From: an uncultured Lachnospiraceae bacterium
GTDB lineage: Bacteria; Bacillota; Clostridia; Lachnospirales; Lachnospiraceae
Assembly (NCBI GenBank): GCA_905236025.1
Contig: CAJOOB010000049.1
Coordinates: forward strand, 1-33,389
Direction: 5' to 3'
DNA: 33,389 nucleotides
A model generated the notes under the pieces. It searched no databases. It saw only the letters and a list, made by a program, of their open reading frames with translations, and was not told the DNA's origin. Shown here in pieces: positions 30,157-33,389 of the stretch. Each line of letters begins with the position of its first letter. The first letter of the stretch is position 1. Both the position numbers and the translations under genes were made by a program.

Positions 30157-30366
30157 ATGGTTTGTCCAAGATGCGGTAATCAGAATTGTACAGTGATCAC
30201 TGAAACTACTTCAACAGGAAAGGATTTCAGTGCAGGTAAGGGATGTCTTGGAGCGCTTATATTTGGACCGCTTGGGGTTTTGTGCGGAGCTTGTGGAAAA
30301 GGTAGGCAGATGCACAGCGTGAGTTTTTGGGTTTGCAACAATTGCGGTTATAAGTGGAAAGTATAA
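30157..30366 (+). CDS. Small zinc-ribbon membrane-associated protein
   Basis: A 69-residue protein with a CPRCGN pair at the N-terminus (C3, C6) and CNNCGYKW at the C-terminus, which together form a four-cysteine zinc ribbon. Between them is a Gly/Leu-rich hydrophobic stretch (KGCLGALIFGPLGVLCGACGKG) that may sit in or on the membrane. Proteins of this layout are common and uncharacterised in Firmicutes. The start follows GGGAGGA. Its stop codon TAA shares one base with the ATG of the next gene, a coupled arrangement. Confidence 0.82.
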   Translation: MVCPRCGNQNCTVITETTSTGKDFSAGKGCLGALIFGPLGVLCGACGKGRQMHSVSFWVCNNCGYKWKV

Positions 30367-30725
30367 TGAATAAGAAAGATAAAATATGGCTGAATTTGAT
30401 GAAATTTGGCCATTTTTTAGGTTGCCACCAAATGGAATGCAGAAGCTTTTCAGTGGGTGGATATCAGTTTCCGTTGTGCGCTAGGTGCACAGGTGTTTTT
30501 GTGGGAGAAATTGTGGGTATTATCATGCTTATCTGTGGCTTTAGATTAGAGTGGTACATTATTGTGCCATTTATTCTTTTGATGGGCGCAGATTGGTTTG
30601 TTCAACGTATTAATCTTTGGGAATCTACAAATGTGCGCCGTTTCGTAACCGGTACCCTTTGTGGGATTGCGCTTGTTTATTGCTATTTTTATGCAATTGT
30701 TTTTATTATCGGTTTGTTTGGGTAA
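30366..30725 (+). CDS. DUF2085 family membrane protein
   Basis: A 119-residue membrane protein with the DUF2085 signature: CHQMECRSFSVGGYQFPLCA (C20, H21, C25, C38) followed by RCTGVFVGE with C41. These conserved Cys/His residues could bind a metal. Three hydrophobic helices follow (about 45-62, 66-84 and 95-117). Function of the family is unknown. The ATG overlaps the stop of the zinc-ribbon gene by one base (TAATG). A GTG twelve bases earlier is in frame, but GGAAAG is better spaced to the ATG. Both proteins of the pair carry cysteine clusters, so a joint role is plausible but inferred. Confidence 0.85.
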   Translation: MNKKDKIWLNLMKFGHFLGCHQMECRSFSVGGYQFPLCARCTGVFVGEIVGIIMLICGFRLEWYIIVPFILLMGADWFVQRINLWESTNVRRFVTGTLCGIALVYCYFYAIVFIIGLFG

Positions 30726-30798: not shown

Positions 30799-30827
30799 TT
30801 TACTTTATTGAAATTTAAGCATATAAT
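30799..30827 (+). promoter_or_regulatory. Candidate promoter of the helicase gene
   Basis: TTTACT at 30799-30804, 17-base spacer, perfect TATAAT at 30822-30827, in AT-rich DNA. A second TATAAT follows about a dozen bases later. No terminator was found for the preceding DUF2085 gene. Confidence 0.5.
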
Positions 30828-30890: not shown

Positions 30891-33389
30891 ATGATTTCTG
30901 TATGTAGAGATATTTTTAAGGCTATTCATGAGGGAAAATGGCTGAAAATTGAATACAGCAATAAAGCCGGCGCAATAACCAGATATTGGATTGCGGTGGT
31001 TGATATTGATGTCAGAAACCGTAGACTGTCTGTTTATGGTATGCATTTAGGTTCTTATGAAATACAAAATCTTAATATATATCTTGATTCTATTCTTTCT
31101 TCAATTGTTGTTGATGGTACATATTATCCTGTAAATAAAAAGTTATTAGAAGATATTGCGTCTAATCCTGATAAATATCGTTCTCTTTTTGATAATGTTG
31201 CTAATTTGAAAATTCTTAATTATTTGGAACGATGCAATAAACTCGATAACACTCCATATTACTCAGAGTTTGAACTTATTAAATATATAGACAGAGATGC
31301 GCTTGTTGGTGATAAATACAGATTATCGGACGAGCAGTTTAAGCAAATTATAAAACATTTTTCGATAAACGCAGATAAGTCTAAAAATTCTAATAAAACC
31401 GGTAATATAAAGATTAAGCAACTGGCAATTAATGTGTTAAGTATCCATACACCGAAGGGGTTATATACTTTAGCATACAGAAAACTGAATTTGGATGTAA
31501 GGGGAAGGTGTATGGTTCCTGAGGATGATATTACCATTTGTACTGAATTCCAGATTGACGGAACTACAAAGGAAAATATAAGGAAGTATCTTGATGCCGA
31601 TGATTACAGTCTTTTAGTTAATTTTGATGAAAATCAGGAATTAATAAAAAATGCAATAACAAAATATAATGATGGCAGGGTTAGCGTGGATGACATGCCT
31701 TATTTAATTGTCATTGGAATGGATATTATTGTTGATTTACACAATGAATATCAAGCGATTGTAAATATGTATGCCGAAGGAAAAACGACATTCCCAATAA
31801 AGGCTTTTTTTGGAGACTTATTAGAAAAACCGAGACGGATTAAAAGTTATCCGATTGCGTTAATTGATAACAGAATTAATCTTGATCAGCTTCTTGCAAT
31901 TAATAAAGCAATGCAGTATCCGACTGCTTACATTCAGGGACCTCCGGGCACCGGAAAAACCAACACCATAATTAACACCATTGTAACCGCTTATTTTAAT
32001 GATAGAACGGTGTTGTTTGCGTCTAATAATAATCATCCAATTGATTCCGTTTTTAATAAGATGTGTAAGATGGAATATAAAGGGAAAATTATACCATTTC
32101 CGATTTTAAGATTGGGAAACAGGGAAAAGGTAGAGGAAACCTTAGAGCATATTCAATTATTGTATCAAATGGTTCAGGATATAAATATTTTTGATGCTAC
32201 GCTTGATAAAAGAAAGGGAGATAGAACCGAGAGAGCAAAGCAATTAACTGAACTTTTGAAAGCTTATGAGGAATATCTTGACCTTGAAGAACGAAAAGAA
32301 ACTTTGCAAAGGATGCTGGATTATCAAAAAAAGGAGACGGTATCTTCTGTTCTTATGCCGTTTGAGTTAGACTTGCAAGGTCGTCAGATGGAACTATTAA
32401 AAAATCAAATCAAAGAGATGCCAAAAGTTACAGAAGAAAAAGCACTCGAACTTTTGGATAGAAATGAAGATGAATTTCTTCAGTACTTGTATTATACTTC
32501 GGCGAAACATATAAAAAGATTAAAAGAAGAAAAGTATTCAGATTTAAGGGAAATATTAACTACAACAGATAAAAAAGAAGCAGTAGATAGCCTTAATAAG
32601 TATCTTTCAGATAGCAGTAATATTAAAAAATTGCAAAAGGTATTTCCAATAATTGTTACAACATGTATGTCGGCCCATAAGCTGGGCAAACCGGAGCCAT
32701 TATTTGATATGACGATCATTGATGAAGCGAGTCAGTGTAATACTGCAATGTCTCTGGTTCCCATAATACGAGGCGAAAACCTGATGTTAGTTGGTGACCC
32801 GCAACAGCTTAACCCGGTTATTCTTTTAGATAATATTTCCAATCAAAAATTGATGAAGGAATACAATATCTCGGAGGAATATAATTACTGTAAAAATTCT
32901 ATTTATAAGGCATTTTTAGCAAGTGATTCTGTGAGTGATGAGATATTATTGCATAATCACTATAGATGTAATCCAAAAATTATTGGATTTAATAATAAAA
33001 AATATTATAATTCGTTGCTTAATATTAAATCAAACGATACGGAAAGAGAACCGTTGTTATTTGTGGATGTAGAGAGTGAAACCGGATCCATAAAAAACAC
33101 ATCAATGCAGGAAGCCAGACGTATAGTAAGTTATGTAAAGGCTAATAAAGATAAAAACATTGGAATTATAACTCCGTTTACAAATCAGAAAGAATTGATA
33201 AATCAGGTTTTAAATGAGGAAGGAATAAAAGGAGTGGCGTGTGGAACTGTACATTCTTTTCAAGGAGATGAAAAAGATGTTGTACTTTTTTCATCGGCAA
33301 TAGGCGAGACGACTCAGACAGGTACATATGAGTGGATTAAGAAAAATCGAGAGCTTATAAATGTCGCAACATCGCGTGCTAAGGATAAA
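30891..33389 (+). CDS. SF1 (Upf1-like) helicase with WYL-like N-terminal domain, 3' end missing
   Basis: 833 codons are open to the window edge. Residues 1 to about 85 look WYL-like (FKAIHEGKWLKIEYSNKAG, then YGMHLGSYEIQNLNIYLDSI). Residues 90-330 are unassigned. The helicase core has Walker A GPPGTGKT at 350-357, a predicted helical insertion (about 400-580), DEASQ at 611-615 with GDPQQL from 635, HNHYRCNPKIIGFNN, GTVHSFQGDEKDVV and VATSRAKD at 825-832, which ends next to the window edge. These are motifs I, II, III, IV, V and VI of superfamily 1B-type enzymes. The start follows GGAG. The gene is clearly more AT-rich, with more AAT, ATT and TAT codons, than uvrA next door, suggesting transfer. 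Relatives with this core occur in defence and repair; the role here is unknown. Confidence 0.85.
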   Translation, partial: MISVCRDIFKAIHEGKWLKIEYSNKAGAITRYWIAVVDIDVRNRRLSVYGMHLGSYEIQNLNIYLDSILSSIVVDGTYYPVNKKLLEDIASNPDKYRSLFDNVANLKILNYLERCNKLDNTPYYSEFELIKYIDRDALVGDKYRLSDEQFKQIIKHFSINADKSKNSNKTGNIKIKQLAINVLSIHTPKGLYTLAYRKLNLDVRGRCMVPEDDITICTEFQIDGTTKENIRKYLDADDYSLLVNFDENQELIKNAITKYNDGRVSVDDMPYLIVIGMDIIVDLHNEYQAIVNMYAEGKTTFPIKAFFGDLLEKPRRIKSYPIALIDNRINLDQLLAINKAMQYPTAYIQGPPGTGKTNTIINTIVTAYFNDRTVLFASNNNHPIDSVFNKMCKMEYKGKIIPFPILRLGNREKVEETLEHIQLLYQMVQDINIFDATLDKRKGDRTERAKQLTELLKAYEEYLDLEERKETLQRMLDYQKKETVSSVLMPFELDLQGRQMELLKNQIKEMPKVTEEKALELLDRNEDEFLQYLYYTSAKHIKRLKEEKYSDLREILTTTDKKEAVDSLNKYLSDSSNIKKLQKVFPIIVTTCMSAHKLGKPEPLFDMTIIDEASQCNTAMSLVPIIRGENLMLVGDPQQLNPVILLDNISNQKLMKEYNISEEYNYCKNSIYKAFLASDSVSDEILLHNHYRCNPKIIGFNNKKYYNSLLNIKSNDTEREPLLFVDVESETGSIKNTSMQEARRIVSYVKANKDKNIGIITPFTNQKELINQVLNEEGIKGVACGTVHSFQGDEKDVVLFSSAIGETTQTGTYEWIKKNRELINVATSRAKDK

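What the first reader, a model, noticed from the sequence alone, without database searches (positions are those of the whole stretch)
30891..33389. WYL-like domain joined to an SF1 helicase in AT-rich DNA
The N-terminus resembles WYL ligand-sensing domains, usually found in regulators of defence and DNA-damage systems, while the core is a complete Upf1-like SF1 helicase. Fusion of the two, the unassigned 240-residue region between them, and base composition unlike the neighbours point to an accessory gene, possibly a defence or stress enzyme whose activity is gated by a ligand. The missing 3' part may carry a nuclease domain.
Basis: partly seen in the sequence, partly recalled or inferred. Interest (0 to 1): 0.7.

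Follow-up and report, generated by a model that had tools for sequence, protein, structure and literature searches.

The report
Mobile WYL-like helicase-nuclease of gut Clostridia
The gene at the contig end belongs to an undescribed family of mobile bacterial DNA-processing proteins, joining a possible sensor barrel, a Upf1-type helicase motor and (in complete relatives) a DNA-cutting domain; it is probably an accessory defence or DNA-damage enzyme, though no activity has been shown.

Summary
The ORF at 30891-33389 is real and is cut only by the contig end. Complete relatives are ~1,011 aa. Residues 1-75 fold as a helix plus five strands, and the best solved matches are WYL regulators (BrxR, PafBC, CapW, DriD). 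The match is one of fold: the WYL sequence profile is not hit, and the WYL residues and the basic ssDNA-binding triad are absent. All SF1 helicase motifs are present and near-invariant. The "unassigned" 240 residues are probably the stalk/1B region of Upf1-like helicases. The family is accessory: 37 of 396 genomes of the host family, neighbourhoods unlike except between close relatives, present/absent between sister genomes with 95-98% identical flank, and once carried in a phage structural cluster. A RecQ gene lies beside it far more often than chance. Low GC is modest and not a family trait. Best reading: a single-protein, Hhe/Dna2-like helicase-nuclease for defence or DNA-end processing, with the barrel as possible gate. 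WYL+SF1 fusions were listed in 2014 and WYL-Pif1 is characterised, so this is a new variant, not a new kind.

The parts
30891..33389 (+). partial gene, 833 codons, 3' end beyond the contig; relatives have about 180 more codons
   Evidence: open ORF; 80 relatives at 53-70% identity, most over residues 1-833, full length about 1,011 aa
30881..30884 (+). ribosome-binding-site-like GGAG, 6 nt before the ATG
   Evidence: sequence
30799..30827 (+). sigma-70-like TTTACT-17-TATAAT, possible promoter
   Evidence: number of such sites is at chance level (4 found, 4.1 expected)
30891..31115 (+). residues 1-75: WYL-like Sm/SH3 barrel
   Evidence: AF2, Foldseek, weak hhalign P=8e-4; canonical residues absent
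31188..31850 (+). residues 100-320: probable stalk helices plus beta-rich 1B-like domain
   Evidence: AF2 secondary structure; phmmer match to IGHMBP2 begins at residue 274; position in Upf1-like helicases (established knowledge); inferred
31938..31961 (+). motif I / Walker A GPPGTGKT (350-357)
   Evidence: 96-100% conserved per residue
32163..32645 (+). residues 425-585: long helical, coiled-coil-like insertion in RecA1
   Evidence: AF2 helices 442-481, 486-509, 526-545
32721..32735 (+). motif II DEASQ (611-615)
32793..32810 (+). motif III GDPQQL (635-640)
33252..33278 (+). motif V HSFQGDEKD (788-796)
33363..33380 (+). motif VI VATSRA (825-830); the contig ends 9 nt later

Best explanation
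An accessory, horizontally moving single-protein helicase-nuclease. Inferred mechanism: the Upf1-like SF1B motor loads on a single-stranded DNA end or gap made by an invading element or by damage and moves 5'->3'. The C-terminal DUF2726 (PD-(D/E)xK) domain cuts DNA once the motor is engaged. The N-terminal WYL-like barrel, beside the stalk/1B region, holds the enzyme inactive or helps it grip its substrate until it sees the right structure or partner. The likely role is defence against phages and plasmids by destroying DNA in an aberrant state (compare Hhe, Hachiman). Shown here: domain order, motif integrity, predicted fold of the barrel, accessory distribution, RecQ adjacency. Inferred: substrate, polarity, gating and biological role.
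For: SF1 motifs near-invariant; Foldseek full model: Senataxin, Upf1, IGHMBP2, Dna2. DUF2726 at the C-terminus, best E=1e-10, with D940 and ELDGKEH at 90-100%. PADLOC similarity to MkoA/MkoC, PDC-S37 and Hhe; the PDC-S37 match runs into the nuclease (577-989). Patchy: 37 of 396 family genomes in 36 genera. Neighbour clusters shared by 92% of pairs over 90% identical but 1-2% of pairs under 70%. Sister genomes G741/G012 with 95-98% identical flank, one without the gene, beside a Wadjet jetA/jetB pair. Carried in a phage structural cluster: portal, major head, sheath, baseplate (L093). Restriction genes near several copies.
Against: No experiment. Immediate neighbours match PADLOC models only somewhat more often than genes further off in the same loci (165 vs 106 models), so a defence-island signal is not established. 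Many neighbours are ordinary genes (cyclophilin, BlaI/BlaR1, response regulators). RecQ and SbcCD neighbours also fit DNA repair. The nuclease was not found in the window's own genome, which is 85% complete. The basic triad of ssDNA-binding WYL domains is missing.
Confidence: 0.55

Rival explanations
1. An accessory DNA-repair enzyme: a bacterial counterpart of Dna2 that works with RecQ, and in some genomes SbcCD (Mre11-Rad50 relatives), to unwind and trim broken ends or stalled forks.
For: RecQ directly adjacent on the same strand at 30-380 bp in several separate lineages. In an unbiased sample 4 of 37 copies lie within 2 kb of RecQ against 0.02 expected. SbcD-SbcC directly upstream (0-60 bp) in one clade of three. 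Dna2 among structural and sequence matches.
Against: Present in only 9% of family genomes and in unrelated neighbourhoods; most copies have no RecQ or SbcCD nearby; phage carriage. RecQ helicases also occur in defence systems (DpdF, PsyrT). Genome-level co-occurrence with RecQ is not significant (19/37 vs 127/359, P=0.07).
Confidence: 0.27
2. An RNA-directed enzyme: the Upf1-like motor moves on RNA or R-loops, with the Sm-like barrel binding RNA.
For: Top structural matches include RNA-bound Senataxin, Upf1 and IGHMBP2; Sm proteins are secondary matches for the barrel; CoCoNuT UPF1-like helicases are predicted to target RNA (PMC11090510).
Against: The C-terminal nuclease is a restriction-endonuclease-like fold called a REase-fold DNase (PMC3710099); recurrent neighbours are DNA-processing genes.
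Confidence: 0.1
3. On the barrel alone (compatible with any of the readings above): the N-terminal barrel is only a structural extension of the Upf1-like fold, with no sensing role and no true relation to WYL.
For: No significant sequence match to WYL; WYL tripeptide, conserved proline and basic triad absent; Sm proteins match nearly as well.
Against: Best 16 PDB matches are all WYL proteins; motif register agrees (AI...I.FxY with AIHEGKWLKIEY, vDRM with IDSI); strong own conservation (H13, W17, Y22, N24, W33, H52) suggests a function.
Confidence: 0.3

Closest known systems
Other SF1-DUF2726 proteins (e.g. WP_237922969.1, Bacteroides finegoldii plasmid; L086, L087)
   Same: AAA_11/AAA_12 helicase core followed by DUF2726 at the C-terminus
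   Different: Only 25-34% identical; helicase begins at residue 98-207 instead of 329, so this N-terminal region is absent or different
Hhe and PADLOC candidate PDC-S37
   Same: single large SF1 helicase; PDC-S37 profile aligns through helicase and nuclease
   Different: 1,550-1,911-position models with a long other N-terminus; DUF4011/DUF3320 not found here
Mokosh MkoA/MkoC
   Same: best PADLOC scores, helicase region only
   Different: kinase and phospholipase-D domains (established knowledge) not found in this family
Dna2
   Same: Upf1-like SF1B helicase plus PD-(D/E)xK nuclease in one chain
   Different: nuclease N-terminal in Dna2 (established knowledge), C-terminal and DUF2726 here; WYL-like barrel is extra
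WYL-Pif1 helicases of thermophiles (Thermotoga elfii; PMC9964779)
   Same: SF1 helicase fused to a WYL domain; [quoted passage not shown]
   Different: Pif1-type, WYL at the C-terminus, basic residues present, no nuclease domain described
WYL fusions listed by Makarova et al. 2014 (PMC4012209)
   Same: WYL + Superfamily-I helicase named among WYL fusions
   Different: family, order and nuclease not described in the passages read; supplement not readable here
CoCoNuT CnuH
   Same: UPF1-like helicase with a helical/coiled-coil insertion after Walker A and an N-terminal barrel
   Different: works beside McrB/McrC-type and CnuE genes; no such recurrent partner recognised here

Membership tests
WYL domain | Sm/SH3-like barrel with N-terminal helix | tested here: met
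   AF2; Foldseek top matches BrxR, PafBC, CapW, DriD at E 1e-3 to 1e-2
WYL domain | match to the Pfam WYL profile | tested here: not met
   no match at E<=1 in the window protein or L003; home-made profile hhalign P=8e-4, probability 24% only
WYL domain | WYL residues and basic triad (R/K 87-100% in nearby WYL proteins) | tested here: not met
   R/K at the corresponding positions 37%, 11%, 5%
WYL domain | binds ssDNA or a nucleotide ligand | not testable with these tools
   needs binding assay
Upf1-like SF1B helicase | motifs I, II, III, IV, V, VI | tested here: met
Upf1-like SF1B helicase | stalk and 1B domain before motif I | tested here: inconclusive
   secondary structure fits; N-terminal model alone does not return Upf1 1B among the top 50
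DUF2726 nuclease | Pfam DUF2726 with D...ExDG..H motif | tested here: met
   27 of 28 aligned proteins, motif 90-100%; not observable in the truncated window gene, and not found elsewhere in its genome
TIGR00376 (IGHMBP2 family) | curated score 348.9 | tested here: not met
   121.8 bits, truncated protein
Mokosh | kinase and/or PLD domain with the helicase | tested here: not met
   no such Pfam match in L003 or among the families found in most members
Hhe | curated score 2000; DUF4011 | tested here: not met
   65.7 bits, no DUF4011 in L003
Dna2 | N-terminal RecB-type nuclease | tested here: not met
   nuclease is C-terminal DUF2726
CoCoNuT | CnuB/McrB, CnuC and CnuE partner genes | tested here: inconclusive
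   no recurrent neighbour of that kind recognised in 116 loci, but not every neighbour was named
anti-phage defence system | protects against phage | not testable with these tools
   needs plaque assay

The most novel reading that the evidence does not exclude
The WYL-like helicase-nuclease and the neighbouring RecQ form a bacterial end-resection pair resembling eukaryotic Sgs1/BLM-Dna2 (with SbcCD standing in for Mre11-Rad50), spread as a mobile immune module in gut Clostridia, whose barrel has lost the usual ssDNA-binding residues and gates the nuclease through a different pocket (H13, W17, W33, H52).
Probability: 0.2. Interest if true: 0.65.

Novelty: new variant of a known kind. Interest (0 to 1): 0.42.

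Why it matters
It defines a family of at least 90 distinct members of a helicase-nuclease with a built-in sensor-like barrel in abundant gut bacteria, and gives a clean test of whether WYL-type barrels, known mainly from transcription factors, directly control a DNA-destroying enzyme. The RecQ link offers a testable parallel to eukaryotic end resection.

Tried and rejected
Pfam WYL match: absent. Home-made WYL profile against the N-terminus: a first run was spoiled by minus-strand loci and redone; the score stayed weak. Defence enrichment by PADLOC: near and far genes differ little, so not used as proof. Atypical base composition as sign of transfer: rejected as general evidence. Same-place test with the upstream transporter-like gene: too few genomes hold it. 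Same-genus comparison G743/G014: synteny not clear. 3' end of the window's own gene elsewhere in the genome: not found. Phage and plasmid collections: only distant helicase matches. Viral structure library: short phage proteins, a few named WYL, none below E=1e-3.

Full report
Observation. The window is one whole contig of a 1.84 Mb, 176-contig assembly. ORF 30891-33389 runs off its right end after motif VI of an SF1 helicase. Of 80 relatives kept from one genome collection, nearly all from Lachnospiraceae and other Clostridia, most match over the whole 833 residues at 53-70% identity, and full-length members are about 1,011 aa. The ORF is therefore an ordinary coding gene cut by the assembly, not a pseudogene or artefact.

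Anatomy. Residues 1-75 are predicted with good confidence as a helix and five strands. The best solved matches are WYL regulators, ahead of Sm proteins. The sequence relation is weak: no Pfam WYL match, and profile-profile P=8e-4 with 24% probability. The tyrosine, proline and three basic positions nearly invariant in WYL proteins of the same bacteria are not kept. Those basic residues bind ssDNA in PafBC and are assigned the same role in Pif1-WYL (PMC11804915, PMC9964779). The family has its own invariant set instead: H13, W17, Y22, N24, W33, H52. "WYL-like barrel" is justified by fold; "ssDNA or ligand sensor" is a hypothesis that the residue test does not support.

Residues 100-320 contain a long helix, a beta-rich stretch and another long helix before motif I. 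This is the place of the stalk and 1B domain in Upf1-like helicases; the full model matches Senataxin, Upf1, IGHMBP2 and Dna2, so the 240 "unassigned" residues most likely belong to the helicase (inferred). A long helical insertion (about 425-585) follows motif I, recalling CnuH of CoCoNuTs. The helicase motifs are 90-100% conserved at nearly all positions.

The missing 3' part. In 27 of 28 aligned proteins, the exception presumably being the cut window protein, the C-terminus matches DUF2726 (best E=1e-10), a REase-fold DNase domain, with FDFV and ELDGKEH at 90-100%. The window's own copy of this part was not found in its 85%-complete genome.

Distribution and mobility. The N-terminal module occurs in 37 of 396 genomes of the host family, in 36 genera, and in few genomes beyond it. 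Gene neighbourhoods are shared by very close relatives only. G741 has the gene and G012 of the same genus does not, although the flank beside it is 95-98% identical; a Wadjet jetA/jetB pair lies 1.5 kb downstream in G741. This region of G012 also differs otherwise (a different set of genes, including one resembling a transposase by eye), so it is presence/absence, not a clean empty site. One copy on a viral contig follows portal, head, sheath and baseplate genes. G793 carries a decayed copy.

Neighbours. A RecQ gene with RQC and HRDC domains is the commonest immediate neighbour: same strand, 30-380 bp away in seven distinct loci, downstream in most and upstream in L004. On the tree the RecQ-adjacent copies need at least three changes, so they are not one clade. 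In the unbiased 396-genome sample, RecQ of this type is in 146 genomes, and 4 of 37 helicase copies lie within 2 kb of one, against 0.02 expected. Genome-level co-occurrence is not significant (P=0.07). SbcD-SbcC sits directly upstream in one clade of three. Type IV and type I restriction genes occur near some copies, but a near/far comparison of PADLOC matches (165 vs 106 models) does not show a clear local defence enrichment.

Interpretation. An accessory, mobile helicase-nuclease is well supported. Defence is the most likely use given mobility, phage carriage and similarity to Hhe, PDC-S37 and Mokosh helicases. A Dna2-like repair role with RecQ is the main rival. Both can be true if it destroys or resects aberrant DNA, as Hachiman destroys it (PMC12278908).

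Novelty. WYL fused to a Superfamily-I helicase was listed in 2014 (PMC4012209) and WYL-Pif1 has been studied. SF1-DUF2726 proteins without this N-terminus exist in other bacteria. The combination and order here, the altered barrel, and the RecQ association were not found described in the papers searched. Hence a new variant of a known kind, of moderate interest.

Noticed in passing
L034:13090-15036 and other loci (L004, L038, L045, L047, L050, L189): RecQ gene on the same strand 30-380 bp from the helicase-nuclease in several lineages; RecQ lengths vary (637-869 aa), suggesting extra C-terminal parts.
   Followed up: partly
L093:3-13015: The helicase-nuclease gene directly follows contractile-tail phage structural genes at the end of a 16 kb viral contig; possible tail-region cargo site.
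   Followed up: partly
L145:1060-7998: Helicase-nuclease next to a small kinase-like gene and Wadjet jetA/jetB in G741; the sister genome has other genes upstream of the same flank.
   Followed up: partly
L071:13010-13567; L035:4047-4634; L069; L072: A 185-195 aa protein without Pfam match (L071 copy tested) starts within about 12 bp after the helicase-nuclease stop in four loci.
   Followed up: no
window 30157-30366 and 30354-30725: A 69-aa ORF with Zn-ribbon-like CxxC pairs overlapping a DUF2085 membrane protein ORF, between the transporter-like gene and the helicase.
   Followed up: no
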